Source: Terriglobales bacterium
GTDB taxonomy: Bacteria > Acidobacteriota > Terriglobia > Terriglobales > Acidobacteriaceae
NCBI GenBank assembly: GCA_035764005.1
Contig: DASTZZ010000106.1
Location: 1-35,710 of the forward strand
Length of the DNA stretch: 35,710 nt
Direction: 5' to 3'
In this document: in pieces, positions 4,120 through 32,550 of the stretch
Layout of the letters: each line of letters starts with the position of its first letter
Numbering within the stretch: position 1 is the stretch's first letter
Notes under the pieces: generated by a model
What the model was told of the DNA's origin: nothing
The model's input: only the letters and a program-made list of their open reading frames with translations
Database searches by the model: none
Made by a program: the position numbers and the translations under genes

Positions 4120-4820
4120 TCTTCTTCCGATTTGGCGAAGGTGGCGACGCTCTCAATTCCGCGCTGCAGCTTGATCTTGGATTCGAGTGCGCGATGCTCC
4201 GGCACCGTGCAGGTGAGGTTGAAGAGCACGCGAGAGAGGTCTGCTGAGCGCCCAATCTGAAGGCCATGCATAAAATGATGCGACTCCTCAAACACTCGGT
4301 TGAGTTCGTCGAGAATCTCCGGTGCGCTCTTGCCGGTTACTTCATAGCTGACGGTGATTGGCTTGAGCCCGAGCCGCGCTTCCAGATATCCAAGCAGGTT
4401 GAGCGCAACCAGGATGATGACTGCAGTAAGTGTGGCAAGCAGGTAGTGCCCGGCGCCTGCAGCCATGCCGATGGAAGCAACTACCCAGATCGTAGCGGCA
4501 GTCGTAAGGCCGGAAACCCCACCTTTGTTGTGGAGGATCGCGCCGGCGCCGAGGAATCCGACGCCCTGCACGATGTTCGAGGCAATGCGCGTGCGATCCC
4601 CGACGCTTGGATCCGGAATCAGCTCCGACATGATCGTAAACAGCGCCGCTCCCATGCAGATGAACATGTTGGTGCGGATACCGGCGCTTTTATGGTGCAG
4701 CGTGCGTTCAAGGCCGATGATCCCGCCGAGCGCGCCTGCAAGCAACAAGCGGAGAAGGCTGGGATACAGAAACTCTATTCGATCTACCTCGAGCGCAGTC
4801 ATATTCAAGAGCGAATGCAT
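4116..4820 (-). CDS. mgtC: MgtC/SapB family inner-membrane protein
   Basis: The 234 residues comprise an N-terminal domain of about four to five membrane helices (from LLRLLLAGALGGIIGLER at about 22-39 to about 145) with the family motif GIRTN and QGVGFLGAGAI, then a soluble ACT-like C-terminal domain (about 155-234). MgtC proteins are linked to growth at low magnesium and to modulation of membrane ATP synthase or ion transport; the exact reaction is unknown. A second methionine (residue 7) is an alternative start. It overlaps dapF by 4 nt and follows the glycosyltransferase gene after 42 bp, so the three may be cotranscribed. No Mg2+ leader could be recognised upstream. Confidence 0.88.
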   Translation of the reverse strand: MHSLLNMTALEVDRIEFLYPSLLRLLLAGALGGIIGLERTLHHKSAGIRTNMFICMGAALFTIMSELIPDPSVGDRTRIASNIVQGVGFLGAGAILHNKGGVSGLTTAATIWVVASIGMAAGAGHYLLATLTAVIILVALNLLGYLEARLGLKPITVSYEVTGKSAPEILDELNRVFEESHHFMHGLQIGRSADLSRVLFNLTCTVPEHRALESKIKLQRGIESVATFAKSEEE

Positions 4821-18462: not shown

Positions 18463-19386
18463 TCACTCTTCCGCAGCCTCCGGCTCAGGCCAGATCAGCG
18501 AAGCGCCCACTGACAAGGCCAGAATTCCGATGACCACGCCGAGCGTAATCCCAAGCGGCGCCTCGTAGAAATGCGAGATCAGCATCTTCACACCGATCAG
18601 CATCAGGATTACCGAGAGCCCATAATGCAGGAAGCGGAACATTCCGAAGAAATGCTCCAGAGCGAAGTACAGCGACCGCAATCCCAACACGGCAAACACG
18701 TTTGAGGTGTAAACGATGAATGCATCGCGGCTGATTGCGAGGATTGCTGGAATGGAATCCACGGCGAAGATCAGGTCGGTGGTTTCGACTACCAGCAGGG
18801 AAAGAAACAGCGGGGTAGCGATCCAGCTTCCGTCGCGCTTGACGAAGAAATTCTTGCCTTCAAAGTTCTCCGTAATCGGAAAGAAGCGCCGGAAAATCCG
18901 GAGCACCAGGTTCTTTTCCGGATCGACATCCGGCTCGCTGCTCCGGAGCAGACCGATGCCGCTGTAAATCAGAATCGCGCCGAAAACATAGATGATGAAC
19001 TCAAAGCGCTGGAGCAGAGAAACGCCGATCAGAATAAAGACTAAACGCATTATCAGCGCACCCAGCACTCCCCAGATCAGGACTTTGTGCTGAGAGTCGC
19101 TAGGCACCCGGAAGTAGCGGAAAAGGATCAGGAACACGAAGAGGTTGTCGACGCTCAGAGACTCTTCGACAACGTATCCGGTGATGAACTGGAGCATGGC
19201 CCCATGCCCATGCCACAGGTACACCAAGCCAGCGAAAGCCGCCGCCAGCAGCACCCAAAAAATGGTCCAGCCGACCGCCTGCCGGAAGGTCATTGTCGGG
19301 CGCCGCCGATGCAGGCCAATATCGAGCGCCAGCATCGCGAGCACAAAGAGGTTGAAGCCAACCCAGAACAGCCAGGATTCGGTCAT
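18463..19386 (-). CDS. TerC-family integral membrane protein
   Basis: 307 residues with about eight or nine membrane helices. The family motifs are present: EESLSVDNLFVF (membrane Asp) and VVETTDLIFAVDSIPA, paired acidic segments inside the membrane thought to carry metal ions. TerC proteins take part in tellurite resistance or in manganese export and metal loading of exported proteins. The ATG at 19386 begins directly before the first helix (MTESWLFWVGFNLF); an open extension to 19590 runs through a heptamer repeat array and is rejected. I looked for a yybP-ykoY-type manganese leader and could not support one. Confidence 0.88.
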   Translation of the reverse strand: MTESWLFWVGFNLFVLAMLALDIGLHRRRPTMTFRQAVGWTIFWVLLAAAFAGLVYLWHGHGAMLQFITGYVVEESLSVDNLFVFLILFRYFRVPSDSQHKVLIWGVLGALIMRLVFILIGVSLLQRFEFIIYVFGAILIYSGIGLLRSSEPDVDPEKNLVLRIFRRFFPITENFEGKNFFVKRDGSWIATPLFLSLLVVETTDLIFAVDSIPAILAISRDAFIVYTSNVFAVLGLRSLYFALEHFFGMFRFLHYGLSVILMLIGVKMLISHFYEAPLGITLGVVIGILALSVGASLIWPEPEAAEE

Positions 19387-19425
19387 GCGGGAGTTCAAGT
19401 GAGTCCTCAGCAGTGTACAGAAATG

Positions 19426-19573
19426 CGGCTCTCGGCTTTTGGCTGTCGGCATTCGGCCAACAACCCTTCTGGTCACAAGAGAACGTAAGAGCGTGGTTAG
19501 TACTGATTCCCGTTCTGGATGGGGAAACCAGCACGTCGCTGGCCGAAAGCTGAGAGCCGATGGCCGACAGCCG
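19426..19573. repeat. Inverted pair of heptamer arrays, family A (YGGCTNT)
   Basis: The left array 19426-19460 has five 7-bp units (for example CGGCTCT, CGGCTTT, TGGCTGT). The right array 19539-19573 has five units that read on the minus strand as CGGCTGT, CGGCCAT, CGGCTCT and so on. The arms are 78 bp apart and inverted, in the spacer between the divergent terC and DUF2231-Rieske genes. Unit length is exactly 7 throughout each arm. Confidence 0.7.
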
Positions 19574-19644
19574 CTTTTTCGGCCATCCATAATTCCGCAA
19601 CTTGCAACAGTCTATGTAGGCCGAATCGGGCCGAGGTGATCGCC

Positions 19645-20478
19645 ATGCAATCGCGCGCGCAGATTAAGTCTCATCCTATCCATCCCATGCTGATCGTGCT
19701 GCCCTTAGGGCTATTTGTCGGCAGTTGGATCTTCGATCTGATTGGCAAAGCCACAAACAATGAGCTGCTCTGGGCTGCAAGTTACTACTCCGCCATCCTC
19801 GGCATCATTGGCGGGTTCTGCGCCGCTATACCGGGCGCTATCGACTGGTTCACGGTTGTGCCTCCACGCTCCAGCGGAAAAAGACGCGGTCTGCTTCATG
19901 CCGGCCTGAACCTGCTCGTCCTAATCGGATTCATCGTGATTGCGGTCCGCCGGTACAGTGCGATCGCTGAGCCCGGAGGATTCGAACTGGGCCTCATGAC
20001 CGCCTGCATCGTCGTACTCGGAATAAGCGGATGGCTCGGCGGCACGCTCGCCTATCGCAATCAGATTGGAGTCGATCATCGCTACGCGAATGCCGGCAGA
20101 TTCAAAGAGCGGCGGCTGGAGAGCTGGGATCGTCCCGCATGCAATCAGAGCGAGCTCAGCGAAGGCCAGATGATGCTGGTACGCGTTGGCAACGAACGCG
20201 TGGTCGTCGGACGCTGCCCGCAAGGCATGATCGCGTTCAGTGATCACTGCACGCACAAAGGCGGACCGCTGTCAGACGGTGCTCTCGTCGGTTGCACCGT
20301 CCAGTGCCCATGGCACGGCTCCCAGTTTGACGTACACACCGGACGCGTTGTCGCAGGTCCGGCGAAGAGCAAGATTGACGTTTACGAAACTCAGATTCGC
20401 GGAGGAGAGGTTTACATCTTGCCGCCTCAAAGTCATTCTCAAGATCAGACGGACGAGAAGGAGCCTGAGGCTGCGTGA
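19645..20478 (+). CDS. DUF2231 membrane domain fused to a Rieske [2Fe-2S] domain
   Basis: 277 residues from the ATG at 19645, with GAGGTGAT 5 nt upstream. Residues about 1-135 form four membrane helices of the DUF2231 type (IKSHPIHPMLIVLPLGLF at 7-24). Residues about 160-255 form a Rieske domain with Cys202 and His204 (CTH) and Cys221 and His224 (CPWH), 16 residues between the two pairs, all four cluster ligands present. The fused domain probably passes electrons at the membrane, but its partner is unknown. The cluster side of the membrane is uncertain. No oxygenase or cytochrome gene is adjacent. Confidence 0.88.
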   Translation: MQSRAQIKSHPIHPMLIVLPLGLFVGSWIFDLIGKATNNELLWAASYYSAILGIIGGFCAAIPGAIDWFTVVPPRSSGKRRGLLHAGLNLLVLIGFIVIAVRRYSAIAEPGGFELGLMTACIVVLGISGWLGGTLAYRNQIGVDHRYANAGRFKERRLESWDRPACNQSELSEGQMMLVRVGNERVVVGRCPQGMIAFSDHCTHKGGPLSDGALVGCTVQCPWHGSQFDVHTGRVVAGPAKSKIDVYETQIRGGEVYILPPQSHSQDQTDEKEPEAA

Positions 20479-20558
20479 GTGTGGACGGCGACGAGGGAAC
20501 TGCTATTTCAGTTCGCCTCCGAGGATGAGCTTGCGATCTGGACAGCTACAATCATCCT

Positions 20559-20777
20559 GTGAATTTCTCTATTGACCGGCGGCACTGGGCATTTGCACTG
20601 CTGCTATTTGCGTTGAATATTGTCGGATTGGTGATCACAGTCTCCAGGAGTTCTGTCTTATTCGACTCCAAAACCGTTCTGCTGATGATTGCATGCTCCG
20701 CCATGATGAGCTTTCTGACCGCGTTCGTAGTCGTCGCGCTATTCGACGCAATGTCCCGTCGCTCGAGGTCGAGGTAG
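20559..20777 (+). CDS. Small two-helix membrane protein, unknown
   Basis: 72 residues from a GTG at 20559, ending in a basic tail (SRRSRSR). Two membrane helices are clear: AFALLLFALNIVGLVITV (11-28) and VLLMIACSAMMSFLTAFVVVALF (40-62). It lies 13 bp before the DNA ligase gene on the same strand. No function can be given. An alternative is that the frame is fortuitous, but the double hydrophobic pattern and position favour a real gene. Confidence 0.5.
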   Translation: MNFSIDRRHWAFALLLFALNIVGLVITVSRSSVLFDSKTVLLMIACSAMMSFLTAFVVVALFDAMSRRSRSR

Positions 20778-20790
20778 ACCGAGCGTAACT

Positions 20791-21915
20791 ATGGCAGCAA
20801 GAAAAAGTCATCGAGAACCTCTCGCTGGAGCTGTTCCTGCTGAAGAACTCCAGGCGCAGTTCCCCGACATCGGCTTACCTATCGAGCCTCCATTCCCTCC
20901 GATGGAGGCGCGCAACGCTGCACGCCTTCCCGAATCGGGAGACTGGCTCTACGAACCAAAATGGGACGGATTTCGCGGTCTTGCTTTCCGCAAAGGCAAC
21001 GAAGTTCTCCTGCAATCGAAAGCCGGACAGCCTCTCGGCCGCTACTTTCCCGAATTGATCGAAGCGCTGCAGAAGCTGCCGCAAAAGCAATTCGTGCTCG
21101 ATGGCGAGATCGTGATCCTCAGCGGCGGCCACCTCGACTTCAATGCTCTCCTCCAGCGCATTCATCCCGCCGAAAGCCGCATTCGACGCCTCGCGCGCGA
21201 AACTCCGGTTACGTTTCTCTGCTTCGATCTGCTGGTCGACGCCAAAGGCAAGCTGCTGACTGATCAATCCCTCGAGCACCGGCGCGAGGCGCTGGAAGAG
21301 TTTTTCAGGGAAGTTCCGAAGGGAGTTGGAGTAAGACTCTCGCCTGCTACGCGCACCTTCGCGACTGCTGATCGCTGGATGGGCAATCTCGCCACTGTGG
21401 GCTTCGATGGGGTGGTTGCGAAGCGGATCGACGAGCCATATCACTCAGGCGACCGCAATGGGATGGTGAAGATAAAGCGGCTGCGAACGGCAGATTGCGT
21501 GGTCGGTGGCTTTCGTTATGCCACCAAAGGCAAGTTCGTGGGATCGCTGCTGCTCGGACTCTATGACGAGCAGGACAAGCTGAATCACGTCGGCTTCACG
21601 TCAAGCTTCAAAGCGGAAGATCGACCAAAGCTGCTGAAAACGCTCGAACCATTTATTGCCGATGACAAAGCACTCGGCTTCAGCGGCAATGCTCCGGGAG
21701 GTCCCAGCCGCTGGTCAAATGAACGCTCAACCGAATGGGTTCCACTTCGGAACAAGCTCGTCTGCGAAGTGCAATACGATCACTTCTCCGGCGGACGCTT
21801 CCGCCATGGCTGCAAGTTCCTCCGCTGGCGCCCTGATAAGAAGCCGAGTCAGTGCACGTACGAACAAGTGATTCCGGGGACGGCGGGGGATTTGGAGAAG
21901 TTGCTGGCGGCGTGA
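20791..21915 (+). CDS. ATP-dependent DNA ligase (LigC/LigD-ligase type)
   Basis: 374 residues: an adenylation domain with active-site Lys57 in EPKWDGFR (motif I, KxDG), then LDGEIVI (motif III region), CFDLLVDAKG, FDGVVAKR (motif IV) and MVKIKR (motif V), followed by an OB-fold domain from about 235. It seals DNA nicks using ATP. It has no polymerase or nuclease domain and no Ku gene nearby, so it resembles the stand-alone LigC group used in base-excision or back-up end-joining repair. It is convergent with hpnJ. Confidence 0.92.
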   Translation: MAARKSHREPLAGAVPAEELQAQFPDIGLPIEPPFPPMEARNAARLPESGDWLYEPKWDGFRGLAFRKGNEVLLQSKAGQPLGRYFPELIEALQKLPQKQFVLDGEIVILSGGHLDFNALLQRIHPAESRIRRLARETPVTFLCFDLLVDAKGKLLTDQSLEHRREALEEFFREVPKGVGVRLSPATRTFATADRWMGNLATVGFDGVVAKRIDEPYHSGDRNGMVKIKRLRTADCVVGGFRYATKGKFVGSLLLGLYDEQDKLNHVGFTSSFKAEDRPKLLKTLEPFIADDKALGFSGNAPGGPSRWSNERSTEWVPLRNKLVCEVQYDHFSGGRFRHGCKFLRWRPDKKPSQCTYEQVIPGTAGDLEKLLAA

Positions 21916-21918
21916 GCT

Positions 21919-22044
21919 AGGTTACAGGGAACAGGGGAGAGGTTACAGGAAAAACAATTACCAATCGCTTGTAATCAGCGATTGAATCCGCGGGGACCGA
22001 GGTAAAGTCGAGGCATCCTGTTCCCTGTTCCCTGTAACCTAATC
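21919..22044. repeat. Inverted pair of heptamer arrays, family B (AGGGAAC)
   Basis: The left array 21919-21953 has five units (AGGTTAC, AGGGAAC and variants). The right array 22017-22044 has four units reading CCTGTTC, CCTGTAA and variants, the inverse family. An 18-bp core, AGGTTACAGGGAACAGGG, is perfectly inverted in the two arms. The element fills the space between two convergent stop codons (21915 and 22052), starting 3 bp after one and ending about 7 bp before the other, so its transcripts can fold into one large hairpin from either side. Confidence 0.8.
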
Positions 22045-22051
22045 CCTGCTT

Positions 22052-23557
22052 TTACTCCGTCCCCACTTCCACTGGTTCTTCTATGCGTGATTCCGGAGCA
22101 ATCGCCGCCGGACGCGGTGCTTTGCGCGCTTCTTCAACGTAGCGATTACGCGCTGCACGCAGCTTCAGGAATGACTTGGCTTCTTTGTACAGGCGCTTGC
22201 GTTCGTCGTTATTGAAGATGGCTTTGCGGACGATGCGATACACCTGCTTTGGACGGAAGTAGTACTCGTCGTAGAAGCGGTGGACCATCTCCATCACATA
22301 GTCGCGCGGCAGGCCAGGATACTCGATGTGGGCCATCTGGTGTCCGCCGGAGTCGACCATCGATTGGGTGTTGATGATGAAACCGTTCTTCTCGGCGTAA
22401 TCGTGGAACTCGGTTCCGGGATAAGCGTGAGCAACAGAAACCTGAATGGTCTCGCAGTCGAGCGACTTGGCGAAATTGATGGTATTGCGAATTGTCTCCC
22501 GCGTCTCGCCTGGCAGTCCCAAAATGAAGTCCGCGTGGATGACGAGTCCCAGCTTGTGACAATCGCGGGTGAAGTCGCGCGCACGTTCGACCGTCGCGCC
22601 TTTCTTGATGTTCTTCAGAATCTGCGCATCGCCTGATTCGTAGCCGACGATCAACAAGCGGCAGCCGGCGTCACGCATAGCCTTGAGAGTTTCGTAGTCG
22701 GTCGTCACGCGCGAAGTGCACGACCACGTGAGCTTCAGCGGCTTGAGCTTCTCGCAGAGTTCGACTGTGCGCGCCTTCTGAATGTTGAAGGTGTCGTCGT
22801 CGAAGAAGTACTCCTTGACGTTCGGCCAATACTCTTTTGCTTTGGCCATCTCGCGTGCAACTGCATCGCTCGAGCGCTTACGCCAAGCGTGTCCACTGAG
22901 CGTCTGCGGCCACAAGCAGAACGTGCACTGCGCGGGGCAGCCGCGCGTCGAATACAGCGACACGAACGGGTGAAGCAGGAACGGTACGTTGTAGCGCGTG
23001 ACGTCCAAGTCGCGCTTATAAACGTCGGTGACGTCCGGCAGCGCATCGAGATCCTGAATCTGCGGACGGTCGGGATTGTGTACGACGCGTCCGTTTTTGC
23101 GATAGGAGATGCCAAGAATCTCGTCGAGCGGCTTACCTTGCGCGTACTCAACCACCGAATAATCGAATTCGCGGCGGCAGACAAAGTCGATGGCGTCGCA
23201 TTCAGTGAGAGCTTTGTCCGGCGCGGTCGTCACCGGCGGACCAACGAAGGCGATCTTCAGCTTCGGATTCGCCGCCTTCATTGCATAGGCGAGTCTCTGA
23301 TCTCCCTGCCATCCCGGGGTGCTGGTGAACAACACCAGGAATTCGTACTGCTTGCCAATTTCGATGGTCTCGTCGGAGGAGACGTGGTGAGGCGGAGCGT
23401 CGAGCAGGCGCGAGCCTTCCAGCATGCCTGCCGGATAAGCCAACCAAACCGGGTACCAGTACGATTCGATCTCTCGAGTGGCCGGCCAGCGCGAACTAGC
23501 GCCGCCGTCAAAGTTCTCGAACGAGGGAGGGTTCAGGAACAGGGTTTTCAATGGCAT
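22052..23557 (-). CDS. hpnJ: B12-binding radical SAM protein, HpnJ-like (hopanoid side-chain enzyme)
   Basis: 501 residues from the ATG at 23557. An N-terminal cobalamin-binding-type domain (MPLKTLFLNPPSFENFDGGA, to about 190) precedes a radical SAM domain with CPAQCTFC (Cys207, Cys211, Cys214; CxxxCxxC). The opening and the LYSTRGCPAQCTFCLWPQTL block match HpnJ proteins, which convert bacteriohopanetetrol toward its cyclitol ether. The upstream frame continues to 23722 through a heptamer array and is rejected as a start. No squalene-hopene cyclase or other hpn gene is adjacent. Another B12-radical SAM role is possible, but the N-terminal sequence is distinctive. Confidence 0.85.
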   Translation of the reverse strand: MPLKTLFLNPPSFENFDGGASSRWPATREIESYWYPVWLAYPAGMLEGSRLLDAPPHHVSSDETIEIGKQYEFLVLFTSTPGWQGDQRLAYAMKAANPKLKIAFVGPPVTTAPDKALTECDAIDFVCRREFDYSVVEYAQGKPLDEILGISYRKNGRVVHNPDRPQIQDLDALPDVTDVYKRDLDVTRYNVPFLLHPFVSLYSTRGCPAQCTFCLWPQTLSGHAWRKRSSDAVAREMAKAKEYWPNVKEYFFDDDTFNIQKARTVELCEKLKPLKLTWSCTSRVTTDYETLKAMRDAGCRLLIVGYESGDAQILKNIKKGATVERARDFTRDCHKLGLVIHADFILGLPGETRETIRNTINFAKSLDCETIQVSVAHAYPGTEFHDYAEKNGFIINTQSMVDSGGHQMAHIEYPGLPRDYVMEMVHRFYDEYYFRPKQVYRIVRKAIFNNDERKRLYKEAKSFLKLRAARNRYVEEARKAPRPAAIAPESRIEEPVEVGTE

Positions 23558-23660
23558 GCGTATAAGCGTCAAATATAACATCCGGAACGGGACTCTTAGT
23601 CCGTTTGGGTAAGAAAATGTTGCCTGCGTAACTGCTTGGAAATCTACGACTTTGGTCGGG

Positions 23661-24227
23661 GCGGTGGGCAAGGGGCAGTAGGCAATAAGCAATAGGCGAT
23701 AGGCGACACGAAGAAGCCGCAAGGCGACACCTATTGCGGGTTATCCGCTCCGATCTTTCGAATTAGTGTTGAAAGCATCGCCTTAATCGATCTCAGCTCG
23801 ATGAACAACTTCTCATAAGCGTCGCGCGCAAGGAAGCCAAGATCACGAGCCAAGAGCAGTTCGCAATCGAGTTCTGACGCCGATCCTAGCGCGATATAAA
23901 GAAAGCGGCGCAAATCCAGATCTCCCGATCGGCCGCAACCTTCAGCGATATTGGCTTCAATCGACACGCAACACCGTCGTACTTGGCTTGTGAGACCAAA
24001 CTTCTCCTCATTCGGAAAGCTTGTGGTAGCACGATAGACAGCAAGACTCAGCCTGTGCGATTTCTGCCAGACTTCCAGACGCCGAAATCTTTCACGTACA
24101 AAGCATCTTGCTCGATCCCAAGTTCTCCAAGTACCAGCCTTGATGCACTGATCAGTATTCGATTCGCCTACCGCTTATCGCCTATTGCCTATTGCTTATT
24201 GCTTATCGCCTATAGCCTACGGCTACC
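23661..24227. mobile_element. Candidate mobile unit: S23-type gene bracketed by inverted heptamer arrays, family C
   Basis: The left array 23661-23709 has seven units (GCAATAA, GCAATAG, GCGATAG and variants), with phase kept to 23730 including a repeated GCGACAC. The right array 24165-24227 has nine units (CGCTTAT, TGCCTAT, TGCTTAT and variants), which is the inverse family. Between them lies one minus-strand gene of the four-helix-bundle (S23) type. The right array runs into the tolC-like stop codon (24225-24223). The whole 567-bp unit sits between two genes that are otherwise neighbours on the minus strand. Confidence 0.55.
23731..24095 (-). pseudogene. Four-helix-bundle protein (23S rRNA intervening-sequence type), frameshifted near the start
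   Basis: From 24084 down to 23731 one frame reads RRLEVWQKSHRLSLAVYRAT, then SFPNEEKFGLTSQ and NIAEGCGRSGD, then FLYIALGSASEL and LLLARDLGFL, a near-perfect S23/four-helix-bundle family sequence. These small proteins form pentameric helical bundles of uncertain role; relatives include the Avd proteins of diversity-generating retroelements. The expected start VKDF (GTG at 24095) is in another frame, one base missing near 24084, and the family frame has no start codon until a GTG at 23967, which would drop the first helix. So the gene is probably broken, unless this is a sequencing error. Confidence 0.75.
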
Positions 24228-25500
24228 TCGTCGACAATGCCCACTTCTCCAAATCCCCCGTCTGCTTCAGCAACTGCATCTGCGCTTTCTCGAGTTCGTA
24301 GGTGGCGTCGAGCAGAGTTGAATACTTGTCGTTCTCGTCGAGCTGCGCTTGTTGCTGATCGCGTAGTGTTGCCTGTCCGGCGTCGACCTTCGCCTGCATC
24401 GCCTCGGTGTTATTTTGGGCGAGCTGGTATTCAAGTTTGGCGACCTCACGCGCTGCGCTGAGCTGAGCAACACTGCGTTGGAGCTTCAGAGTCTCGGTTG
24501 AAACCTGCTCCTTCGCTGCGTCGACGTCCTTGCGCGCACGCAGAGCATCAGCATAGGCGGCCTCGCTATGGTCTTTCTGCCCTTTGTTGAGAAATGGGAA
24601 GCGGATTTCAATGCCAATCGCTCCGTTATTTCGACGGAAGGTTTTGTAGTACTGGTCGTAGTTGTTGTATTTGGTGAATCGCGCGTACTGTCCAACGAGA
24701 TCGACGGCTGGATAAAGCTGCTTGTGCTCTCCGCGAGCCTGGAACAGCTTCGCCGAAGCCAGTTCTTTCGCACTCGCTACGGCAGGGCTGAAGTTCACGG
24801 CACGTGTTGCCAGGTCTTCGCCTTGCGAGACTTCCGGCAGGCGCGGAATAGACTCGGCGACGGTTTCAAATTCCTTTGCGGGCAAACCGGTGAGCTGAGA
24901 GAGACGCATGCGCAGCGTGTCCGCTCCCGCGACCAGTTCCGCGATCTTTAGCCGAATGCGCGCCGTGTTCAGTTTTGCCTTGGTGAGTTCGATGGGCGCG
25001 TCGACGCCAGCCTGAATGCGCTGGTGCTCAATGTCTTCGAACTTCAGCGCGGCATCTTCCTGCTGGCGCAGCACATTGATCGATGCCTCATTCTTATCCA
25101 ACTCTGAATATGAAAGCGCTGTTTCGAGAATTATCTGACCCTTCTTTTCTTGCTTGTTTAAAGTCGCGGCACGAACGTCGCTGCGCGCGGCCTTGATGAA
25201 CTCGCGTTGCGCCTCGTTGAGCAGCAGGCTGGTCGAACTCACCTTGAACAACGACGGCTCGCCCAACGGAAAACCGAACGAGTACGCGAGTCCAGAACCG
25301 AAATAGACCTGGGGGATGTACTGATCACGCGCCTCTTGGTATGTCGCTTGCAATCGATTCACATCGACATCTGCGGCGTTCACCGCCGTGCTGTTGCGAA
25401 TAGCAAGCTCAATGGCGCGCTTGAAAGTTACTGGTTCAGCATTCGCGATCGAGGGAACAAAAGCAGCGAGAAGAAGAACAACTCGATATTTCTGGAGCAT
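24223..25500 (-). CDS. TolC-family outer-membrane efflux protein
   Basis: 425 residues. Signal peptide 1-21 (cut after SIANA). Two repeated helical halves follow, with VTFKRAIELAIRNSTAVNAAD (24-44) opening the first and long heptad-rich helices (about 110-190 and 320-400) that would build the periplasmic tunnel. It would form the outer-membrane exit duct of a tripartite pump or type I secretion system. No membrane-fusion or inner-membrane pump gene is adjacent, so its partner is elsewhere. The heptamer array at 24165-24227 begins at its stop codon. Confidence 0.85.
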   Translation of the reverse strand: MLQKYRVVLLLAAFVPSIANAEPVTFKRAIELAIRNSTAVNAADVDVNRLQATYQEARDQYIPQVYFGSGLAYSFGFPLGEPSLFKVSSTSLLLNEAQREFIKAARSDVRAATLNKQEKKGQIILETALSYSELDKNEASINVLRQQEDAALKFEDIEHQRIQAGVDAPIELTKAKLNTARIRLKIAELVAGADTLRMRLSQLTGLPAKEFETVAESIPRLPEVSQGEDLATRAVNFSPAVASAKELASAKLFQARGEHKQLYPAVDLVGQYARFTKYNNYDQYYKTFRRNNGAIGIEIRFPFLNKGQKDHSEAAYADALRARKDVDAAKEQVSTETLKLQRSVAQLSAAREVAKLEYQLAQNNTEAMQAKVDAGQATLRDQQQAQLDENDKYSTLLDATYELEKAQMQLLKQTGDLEKWALSTR

Positions 25501-31521: not shown

Positions 31522-32550
31522 TTACTTGAAGAACTCGATCATGGGGTTGGCAGTTGCAGCAGCACCGATATTTCCGTCGATGCCCATGTAATTTGTGATC
31601 GTCTTCAGCAGATTTTCGTGCTGATAGAAGTTCGAGCTCTGAAAAGCGGTCTTTGCGCTTGGTCCGGCCACGACCATGGCTACGCGTCCGCCGCCGTGGC
31701 TGGAGTCGGTGTCGTCAGCTTCGTCAAAGACGACGATCAAGACTCCACCGTTCTGAAACCGTGAACTGGTAAGAACGGGCGCAATGTTCTGTTTCAACCA
31801 TGCATCCGCCTGGGCGAGGCTGCCGTCATGAGCGTCGTCATTCACGTTGGGAACTACAAAAGAGAAGTCCGGAAGTTTGCCGGCACCCATATCATTCGCG
31901 AACTGACTGAACGGAACCAGGTTGTTCGCCTGCGCTGTTCCGCGGACGTCTGAAAAATAAGAGAAAGGATTGTGACGCTCGAGGTATGCGCCCTGATTGC
32001 CGCCGGTATAGCCGACGTTCGGCAGATCTTCTGCATACGACTTCCACGTCTTGCCCGCCGCTACCATGTGACGCACGAGATTATCGGCATTGACAGTTCC
32101 CGTGAAAGAATCCGGATCGGACGTTCCCGTCAAATTCGTGAGCAACGAACCGGTCGTGAACATGAAGTAGTTACCGATCGACGGATGCGTATCCGCGTAA
32201 TACTGCGTAGCGAGTCCGTACTGATTCGCGAGTTGGTTCAAGTACGGCATCGCCGAGCTTCCAATCACGCTGCTATAGCCATAGTTCTCTTCCAGCACCA
32301 GCACCACCGGACCTGTCGTGGGTGTCGGAGTGGGAGTCGGGGTCGGAGTTGGAGTCGGAGTCGGCGTCGGGGTCGGGGTTGGCGTGGGTGTAGGTGTCGG
32401 GGTTGGTGTCGGCGTCGGATCCGATACTGGATTTGATGAACTACTGGTGTTTGGAACACCCGAGCTGGCTCCGCAGCCAAACAGGCAAGCTAATAAAGCG
32501 AGCGCAGCAATGAACCGCACTCCCTTGCTGAATACTGACAGAACGCGCAT
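31522..32550 (-). CDS. Phosphoesterase-family lipoprotein with a Pro-Thr linker
   Basis: 342 residues. The lipoprotein signal ends at LFGC (Cys26), so the protein is lipid-anchored outside the inner membrane. A Ser/Asn stretch and seventeen PT dipeptides (32418-32317) form a stiff linker. The catalytic domain follows, with LVLEENYGYSSVIGSSAMPYLNQL, then DTHPSIGNYF, DDAHDGS and VVFDEADDTDSSHGGGRVAMVVAGP, matching the phosphoesterase family that includes acid phosphatases and phospholipase C-type enzymes (PF04185, SapM-like). The metal-binding Asp/Glu/His residues are retained. The substrate may be a phosphate ester or phospholipid; the nearest match in function cannot be set from sequence. Confidence 0.85.
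   Translation of the reverse strand: MRVLSVFSKGVRFIAALALLACLFGCGASSGVPNTSSSSNPVSDPTPTPTPTPTPTPTPTPTPTPTPTPTPTPTPTPTTGPVVLVLEENYGYSSVIGSSAMPYLNQLANQYGLATQYYADTHPSIGNYFMFTTGSLLTNLTGTSDPDSFTGTVNADNLVRHMVAAGKTWKSYAEDLPNVGYTGGNQGAYLERHNPFSYFSDVRGTAQANNLVPFSQFANDMGAGKLPDFSFVVPNVNDDAHDGSLAQADAWLKQNIAPVLTSSRFQNGGVLIVVFDEADDTDSSHGGGRVAMVVAGPSAKTAFQSSNFYQHENLLKTITNYMGIDGNIGAAATANPMIEFFK
32317..32418 (-). repeat. Hexanucleotide microsatellite coding for (PT)17
   Basis: 102 bp of degenerate 6-bp units (third-base variants of CCN-ACN on the minus strand) encode seventeen Pro-Thr pairs. Gain or loss of units would keep the frame and only change linker length. Confidence 0.9.

What the first reader, a model, noticed from the sequence alone, without database searches (positions are those of the whole stretch)
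19426..24227. Three inverted pairs of heptamer arrays with different sequences but one architecture
Within 5 kb three spacers carry arrays in strict 7-bp register, each with an inverted partner array: YGGCTNT (19426-19573), AGGGAAC (21919-22044) and GCAATAG/CTATYGC (23661-24227). The families share no sequence, only the unit length and the array/inverted-array layout. Degenerate heptamers (STRR) are known in cyanobacteria, but paired inverted arrays as a unit are not something I recognise. A fourth, weaker tract of three heptamers lies at 236-256.
Basis: partly seen in the sequence, partly recalled or inferred. Interest (0 to 1): 0.8.

Follow-up and report, generated by a model that had tools for sequence, protein, structure and literature searches.

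The report
Mobile S23 genes with heptamer ends
The paired seven-base repeat arrays are the ends of a small jumping DNA element found across many bacterial phyla; some copies carry a gene for a small four-helix protein and others are empty, and this may explain why seven-base repeats are so common in bacterial genomes.

Summary
The three array pairs are real but not bare repeats. The largest encloses an unannotated gene for an S23/IVP four-helix-bundle protein (PF05635). S23 genes of many phyla sit between inverted arrays of 7-mers (some 8- or 9-mers): 28 of 37 Acidobacteriota loci, control 0 of 107; 41 of 79 loci of a capped pan-bacterial scan. The other two window pairs lack the gene; one matches an S23 element elsewhere in this genome, as do five of seven ORF-less elements examined. 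Cyanobacterial plasmids show filled and empty sites with flanks up to 97.8% identical, exact 5-bp target duplications at two of seven S23 sites, and ORF-less insertions. Two S23-lacking relatives have no 7-bp tracts in 787 kb; two S23-bearing ones have 18 and 36 in about 0.4 Mb each. Best reading: an S23-heptamer mobile element family whose protein probably recognises the heptamers. The cutting enzyme is unknown; this genome has no RVT_1 match. Inverted heptamer pairs are in print for Xanthomonas; my searches found no paper linking them to S23 or to movement.

The parts
23654..24227 (-). S23-bearing heptamer element (gene-carrying copy)
   Evidence: Alignment with G001 is good up to about 23653; the spacers of G001 and G003 lack arrays and S23 frame, though both hold some unalignable spacer there
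23661..23706 (.). outer array of GGCAATA-type heptamers, rSAM side
   Evidence: inverted-arm alignment score 47
24178..24223 (.). inverted partner array, OEP side, reaching the stop codon of the OEP gene
23731..24174 (-). open frame for an S23/IVP four-helix-bundle protein (domain 23770-24081); no frame of 80 aa or more with ATG/GTG/TTG start is listed here, only one from ATC at 24144, so this copy may be decayed or start unusually
   Evidence: PF05635 E=1.9e-35, TIGR02436 E=1.2e-35, domain position, start codons
19421..19578 (.). ORF-less heptamer element, GGCTNTC type, arms 19421-19459 and 19540-19578; cognate of the S23 element L001 in the same genome
   Evidence: score 55 to L001 against 25 or less to the other four S23 elements; fold z -5.2
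21918..22041 (.). ORF-less heptamer element, AGGGAAC/AGGTTAC type, arms 21918-21942 and 22017-22041, just after the ligase stop codon
   Evidence: same type at the same site in G003, none in G001 and G002 (by eye); fold z -6.4

Best explanation
These are copies of a small mobile element, here called the S23-heptamer element: two inverted arrays of degenerate 7-bp units (core NRGYNNT read inward) enclosing either an S23/IVP gene (mostly about 400-600 bp in all) or a short non-coding core (about 90-250 bp). Shown by comparison: the module is gained at new intergenic sites as a unit, ORF-less modules are gained too, and ORF-less copies tend to match one S23 copy of their own genome. Inferred: the S23 protein, a relative of XCC0516 and of Avd (pentamers, recalled; five chains per solved entry), binds the heptamer units of both ends, holds them together, and delivers the element to an unknown host- or partner-supplied nuclease or integrase that makes a 5-bp staggered insertion; ORF-less copies with matching heptamers move in trans. 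Insertion or survival is favoured between co-directional genes, so that a promoterless S23 gene is read through. The confidence given covers the element as a mobile family (about 0.9) together with S23 being its recognition factor (about 0.55).
For: Association: inverted-repeat score 32 or more at 28 of 37 S23 loci against 0 of 107 control sites, and at 41 of 79 pan-bacterial loci; there 50 of 79 reach 28, as do 2% of 606 mismatched left/right flank pairs. Mobility: reciprocal empty sites on Nostoc plasmids; six plasmid records, 97.5-97.8% identical to the L178 region over 84% of it (three are strains of one lineage by name, recalled), of which I aligned two, both lacking exactly 428 bp; 5-bp duplications GTAAT and TTCTA; an ORF-less insertion with three empty relatives, and nesting; BLAST similarity of one S23 element at two different plasmid sites ends at the outer ends of the arrays. 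Trans pairing: scores 49-82 to the one partner, 29 or less to the others, for 5 of 7 ORF-less elements. Dependence: no lag-7 tracts in 787 kb of two S23-lacking genomes. Orientation: between co-directional neighbours S23 points the same way in 85 of 92. Recognition: the residue after NIAEG covaries with heptamer base 4 (z 12.3), and a rule fixed beforehand was right in 28 of 35 further loci. Protein under selection: dN/dS 0.12 in two plasmid pairs, dS about 1.2.
Against: S23 has no known catalytic fold and no enzyme was identified. Exact 5-bp duplications are seen at two of seven S23 sites, a 4-of-5 match at a third; they are unclear at the other four and at the ORF-less site (by eye). After pairing related sequences the residue-base covariation drops to p=0.015 (second among the columns tested, not corrected), so shared ancestry explains much of it. 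Nine of 37 and 38 of 79 S23 loci do not reach score 32, and 13 of 55 further loci show no clear 7-mer pair. Plasmid copies are not uniform: L236 shows no inverted arrays, L184 and L237 have them in direct orientation (by eye). G046 has 36 lag-7 tracts but one strict inverted pair, so many arrays are single or eroded. Rehm et al. report that 90% of Xanthomonas repeats lie between the same genes in two species (PMC4692102), so movement is not frequent there. The window S23 copy lacks a usual start codon.
Confidence: 0.7

Rival explanations
1. The elements are MITE-like DNA moved by an ordinary transposase supplied in trans, and the S23 gene is cargo or a stability factor rather than the recognition factor.
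For: Inverted ends plus 5-bp duplications look like DNA transposition. Y1 transposase copy number follows S23 copy number over 61 genomes (rho 0.68, 0.61 after genome size, not corrected for phylogeny). One of 16 Y1 loci (L208) has a single GGCTNTC-like tract about 440 bp from the Y1 gene.
Against: Strong lag-7 tracts (24 or more of 35) occur at 0 of 16 Y1 loci against 30 of 55 S23 loci, and the L208 tract has no inverted partner within 400 bp; 14 of the 16 Y1 loci have other inverted repeats of score 46 or more. Five S23-bearing genomes have no Y1 match. A mere cargo gene would not explain why so many families, each with its own heptamers, carry the same protein. Other transposase families were not searched.
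Confidence: 0.2
2. Retromobility: the element RNA folds into a hairpin, S23 acts like Avd, and a reverse transcriptase copies the RNA into new sites.
For: The S23 model matches Avd and the DGR reverse-transcriptase complex, TM-scores 0.70-0.87 at Foldseek E 0.01-0.05, and PHROG 3206 Avd; strong sense-strand bias.
Against: G000 has no RVT_1 match, and 29 of 46 S23-bearing genomes have none; other reverse-transcriptase profiles were not tried.
Confidence: 0.12
3. No transposition: heptamers are ordinary hypermutable repeats that grow by slippage, and S23 genes spread only by homologous recombination between existing arrays.
For: Insertions in L178 and L234 differ by 14 bp, two heptamers, in one array; L177 and L243 share arms but have different cores; heptamers are over-represented in bacteria in general (PMC4692102 and PMC4679880, passages read).
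Against: The empty sites that were aligned hold no array to recombine with, and the insertion carries both arrays and core. Slippage does not make inverted partners or match the S23 copy in the same genome.
Confidence: 0.08
4. A regulatory or RNA-processing spacer, like the 23S rRNA intervening sequence, kept because it is excised from transcripts by RNase III.
For: The two short window elements fold far better than shuffles (z -6.4 and -5.2); S23 elements sit inside operons, including CRISPR-cas operons.
Against: Arms in their observed register are no more alike than with permuted unit order (0.886 against 0.893, 42 hand-trimmed pairs), so unit-by-unit pairing does not appear to be selected. 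Presence is scattered among relatives. This describes tolerance, not spread.
Confidence: 0.1

Closest known systems
23S rRNA intervening sequences with S23/IVP ORF (Coxiella, Leptospira and others; PMC4990558, passages read)
   Same: Same protein family, terminal inverted repeats, 428 nt in Coxiella, described as a selfish element; mobility was proposed but not shown in the passages read
   Different: Here the element sits between protein genes rather than in 23S rRNA; its ends are heptamer arrays; several copies and ORF-less copies per genome; empty sites and target duplications seen
RAYT/REPIN elements (PMC3116915, abstract and outline read)
   Same: Inverted doublets of a repeat unit dispersed through the genome, related to a gene that is thought to move them
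   Different: Protein is not a Y1 transposase; ends are tandem heptamers. Y1 loci of the same genomes have separate repeats
Heptamer repeats: Xanthomonas GGGAATC and Nostoc GGGGA(C/T)T (PMC4692102), Beggiatoaceae TAACTGA (PMC4679880), cyanobacterial STRR (PMC2670836) (passages read)
   Same: Tandem 7-mers in spacers; inverted pairs in Xanthomonas; GGGAATC and TAACTGA fit the NRG core by inspection
   Different: The passages read mention no S23 gene, and a search for 'S23' in PMC4692102 and PMC4679880 found none; Rehm et al. generally did not find the repeats with mobile elements. MacGregor suggested that a repeat-binding protein might be the mobile element
Avd of diversity-generating retroelements (4DWL, 8UB7)
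   Same: Same four-helix fold
   Different: No reverse-transcriptase match in G000; template and variable repeats were not looked for; heptamer ends

Membership tests
PF05635 / TIGR02436 S23 four-helix-bundle protein | profile match over the curated cut-off | tested here: met
   121.7 bits against 33.8; 122.1 against 24
PF05635 / TIGR02436 S23 four-helix-bundle protein | fold of the solved members | tested here: met
   model pLDDT 95.8; 2gsc TM 0.77-0.93, 2rld 0.75-0.90
23S rRNA intervening sequence | insertion inside a 23S rRNA gene | tested here: not met
   window element lies between protein genes; no Rfam match in window 19201-24600 or in 20 selected S23 loci; the other S23 loci were not scanned for rRNA
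23S rRNA intervening sequence | excision by RNase III | not testable with these tools
   fold energies only
RAYT/REPIN | Y1 tyrosine transposase encoded in the element | tested here: not met
   only PF05635 found in the element frame
RAYT/REPIN | palindromic REP units (recalled) | tested here: not met
   units are tandem heptamers
Diversity-generating retroelement (Avd) | reverse transcriptase in the same system | tested here: not met
   0 RVT_1 matches in G000
DNA transposon or MITE | target-site duplication of fixed length | tested here: inconclusive
   exact 5 bp at 2 of 7 S23 sites, 4 of 5 at a third, unclear at four and at the ORF-less site
DNA transposon or MITE | transposase acting on the ends | not testable with these tools
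   none recognised in the window element; a trans-acting one cannot be excluded
STRR / heptamer repeat class | degenerate tandem 7-mers in spacers | tested here: met

The most novel reading that the evidence does not exclude
A pan-bacterial class of mobile element in which a pentameric four-helix-bundle protein with no known catalytic fold is the mobility factor: it reads 7-bp units through a simple residue-to-base rule (the residue after NIAEG with heptamer base 4), mobilises matching ORF-less array pairs in trans, is the source of most long heptamer repeats in bacteria, and is the free-living ancestor of the S23-bearing 23S rRNA intervening sequences.
Probability: 0.35. Interest if true: 0.95.

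Novelty: new variant of a known kind. Interest (0 to 1): 0.85.

Why it matters
It would join three loose ends: why heptamer repeats are over-represented in bacteria, what the common 'four helix bundle / S23' proteins are for, and whether 23S rRNA intervening sequences come from mobile elements. It also warns that S23 genes found next to CRISPR-cas or other operons may be hitchhikers. Each step is testable with a protein of about 120 residues and short DNA.

Tried and rejected
Dependence on a reverse transcriptase of the RVT_1 family: rejected as a general requirement. Heptamers as ends of Y1/RAYT elements: little support (one single tract near one Y1 gene). Unit-by-unit hairpin pairing: no excess. 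Repeats at two places in G046 (query 1257-1400 and 4598-4741) looked like empty-site evidence but show no heptamers and belong to something else. 23S rRNA location of 20 selected S23 loci, mostly with weak arrays: no Rfam match. A recognition code as proof of contact: held back to 'suggestive' after the phylogeny control; two base-4 differences there (L004, L256) look to me like register errors of mine. Xanthomonas S23 (XCC0516) beside GGGAATC arrays: not tested, because I had no Xanthomonas genome; a plasmid search with part of that protein showed no Xanthomonas among the 20 of 25 records listed.

L061 dropped for short flank (79 of 80); L006 is a piece of the gene in L005. In one search, five of 129 loci lacked a neighbour call; loci with short flanks plus L005 and L007-L009 were not entered, and neighbours are longest open frames, not annotated genes. 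The 61 arrays were chosen and trimmed by me among lag-7 loci, leaving out weak ones and also L029, L036 and L039; the 42 arm pairs likewise. L005 was skipped. In one search, 13 of 55 loci had no clear 7-mer pair and 7 of the 42 had no prediction; those loci are relatives of the first set, so not independent by descent. The S23-free comparison rests on two genomes against two. Two of six 97.5-97.8% plasmids were aligned.

Papers: passages only for PMC4990558, PMC10910872, PMC8700078, PMC10053308, PMC5524665, PMC2670836, PMC4748335 (a reference entry), PMC4679880, PMC4692102 and PMC3542288 (a reference entry); abstract and outline for PMC3116915. 'Not found in print' rests on listings of the searches, open-licence full texts only.
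Full report
WHAT IS THERE. The three paired arrays exist at the stated places. The third pair encloses an unannotated minus-strand open frame, 23731-24174, that matches PF05635, the S23 or 23S rRNA-intervening-sequence protein, at E=1.9e-35, TIGR02436 'four helix bundle protein' and, weakly, the Avd protein of diversity-generating retroelements (E=9.4e-7). Its model (pLDDT 95.8) matches the solved S23 proteins 2gsc and 2rld, and then Avd and the DGR complex. The frame has no ATG, GTG or TTG start, so the window copy may be decayed. The other two pairs enclose only short non-coding cores.

S23 GENES AND HEPTAMER ARRAYS BELONG TOGETHER. The genome (G000, 5.1 Mb) has nine PF05635 matches, eight over the cut-off, at eight loci; 46 of 61 genomes (G000 and 60 relatives) have at least one. 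Around 37 S23 loci, eight of G000 and the best of 29 relatives, the best inverted repeat scored 32 or more in 28 (my count of the printed rows), against 0 of 107 control sites, maximum 29. Among the 80 best loci of one capped scan over many phyla, 79 had flanks: 41 reached 32 and 50 reached 28, while 2% of 606 mismatched flank pairs reached 28 (maximum 48). The arms are tandem 7-mers in most of the positive ones, 8-mers or 9-mers in some. Of twelve plasmid copies looked at, eight cyanobacterial ones and one Azospirillum copy have inverted arrays, L184 and L237 have direct ones (by eye), and L236 shows none.

ONE DEGENERATE CORE. Sixty-one arrays aligned by rotation give N-R-G-Y-N-N-T read inward from either end, 3.71 bits against 2.25 +/- 0.08 for permuted columns. 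The arrays were chosen and trimmed by hand, so the figure is indicative. In the later automatic run on 55 further loci, most of the 42 heptamers found again carry the RG core, though the rotation used the first profile.

ORF-LESS COPIES MATCH S23 COPIES OF THE SAME GENOME. In 435.7 kb of G000 (C69 and C19 stretches plus the window) there are seven strict lag-7 inverted pairs: two with S23 genes and five without, 93-164 bp. Against five S23 elements of the genome, five of seven ORF-less elements (four of those five plus window 19421-19578) match exactly one, at 49-82, with all other scores 29 or less. The AGGGAAC/AGGTTAC type (window 21918-22041 and C69:38863) matched none of the five.

DEPENDENCE ON S23. 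The same scan finds no lag-7 tract in 400 kb of G022 and 387 kb of G054, both without PF05635 matches, against 18 tracts in G000 and 36 in G046. G046 has only one strict inverted pair, so many arrays there are single or eroded. Two against two genomes is a small sample.

MOVEMENT. In the window, the S23 element is absent from the orthologous spacers of G001 and G003, and the ligase-side element is present in G003 with a different core but absent from G001 and G002. These flanks are only about 72-84% identical and the G001 and G003 spacers hold some unalignable bases, so they are absences rather than clean empty sites. Plasmids give cleaner cases. Nostoc plasmids L177 and L183 carry an S23 element between genes X and Y where L180 has none; L180 carries another between Y and Z where L177 and L183 have none. 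Six plasmid records are 97.5-97.8% identical to the L178 region over 84% of it; the two that I aligned lack exactly 428 bp. Further filled/empty sites with more diverged flanks: a type III-B CRISPR operon in Picosynechococcus PCC 7003 against PCC 7002, and sites in L179, L181 and L238. L226 is a shortened copy at the L178 site, and L227 has ORF-less arrays at the L181 site. An ORF-less insertion in L177, L241 and L243 is missing from L180, L183 and L242; in L177 and L243 a second one is nested inside it, with like arms but different cores. The 78%-identical elements of L183 and L178 show no BLAST similarity beyond the array ends.

TARGET DUPLICATION. Exact 5-bp repeats flank the insertion at the L178 site (GTAAT) and in L177 (TTCTA; the L183 copy has one change). 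The L180 site has a 4-of-5 match. The four other S23 sites and the ORF-less site are unclear because their flanks have diverged (by eye).

ORIENTATION. Of 129 loci entered, 124 had both neighbours called. Where the neighbours point the same way, S23 points with them in 85 of 92, p=4e-18; 32 loci have convergent or divergent neighbours. This suits a gene without its own promoter, whether by insertion bias or by selection.

HOW IT PROBABLY WORKS. Shown: gain of the module as a unit at new sites, gain of ORF-less modules, genome-specific matching, and purifying selection on the protein (dN/dS 0.12 in two pairs, dS about 1.2). Inferred: S23 binds the heptamers. The residue after NIAEG covaries with heptamer base 4 more strongly than any other column and position (z 12.3, next 8.9); the rule C-C, Q-T, Y-G, K-G, A-T, S-A was right in 28 of 35 further loci, against 12.3 expected. 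But on 51 disjoint pairs of related proteins the link falls to p=0.015, second among the columns, so common descent may carry much of it. At the least, protein and heptamers travel together. Paired arms are no more alike unit by unit than with shuffled unit order, which favours repeated binding sites over a selected hairpin, although the two short window elements fold far better than shuffles. Catalysis is unknown. G000 has no RVT_1 match and 29 of 46 S23-bearing genomes have none. Y1 transposases correlate in copy number (rho 0.68, no phylogenetic correction), but strong lag-7 tracts occur at 0 of 16 Y1 loci against 30 of 55 S23 loci, and 14 of those 16 have other inverted repeats; one, L208, has a single weaker GGCTNTC-like tract nearby.

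WHAT IS KNOWN. Rehm et al. (PMC4692102, passages) describe Xanthomonas GGGAATC heptamers, 70 and 75 inverted pairs, generally no link with mobile elements, and 90% of repeats between the same genes in two species. MacGregor (PMC4679880, passages) describes TAACTGA repeats and suggests a repeat-binding protein as the mobile element. Warrier et al. (PMC4990558, passages) record the old proposals that 23S rRNA intervening sequences are transposition remnants or mobile elements with an ORF for mobility. PMC10910872 (one legend) names the IVP domain among the domains of its CRISPR-linked systems; the CRISPR-operon insertions here suggest that some such links may be hitchhiking. The searches named in Tried and rejected listed no paper that I could see joining S23 genes to heptamer arrays or showing their movement.

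VERDICT. A mobile element family with S23 genes and heptamer-array ends is well supported. S23 as the recognition factor is likely but unproven. The chemistry is open.

Noticed in passing
L182:1968-2324 (Picosynechococcus PCC 7003) and L184:1974-2333 (Pseudanabaena galeata): S23 elements lie inside CRISPR operons, between cas10/cmr2 and cmr3 and between cas6 and cas4; PCC 7002 lacks the former.
   Followed up: yes
L177:1191-1455 and L243:101-628: Nested ORF-less elements at the same site with alike arms but unrelated cores, as if cores were exchanged between arrays.
   Followed up: partly
L205-L224 (Y1 transposase loci of G000 and relatives): 14 of 16 Y1 loci have other inverted repeats with palindromic parts (by eye); their copy number follows S23 copy number. 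L208 also has a single GGCTNTC-like heptamer tract near position 1692.
   Followed up: partly
L137 (G046) query positions 1257-1400 and 4598-4741: Multi-copy repeats of about 140 bp without heptamers; the first is absent from G061.
   Followed up: no
L007 and L008 (G000:C98 and C65): Longer open frames (235-237 aa) with partial PF05635 matches; GTGGAC-type 9-mer arrays flank L008, and similar arrays lie beside L007.
   Followed up: no
L178 and L234: The same insertion differs by 14 bp, two heptamers, in one array, so array length changes after insertion.
   Followed up: no
window 32324-32419: Tandem array of 6/18-bp units (GTCGGA), 16 copies, unrelated to the heptamers.
   Followed up: no
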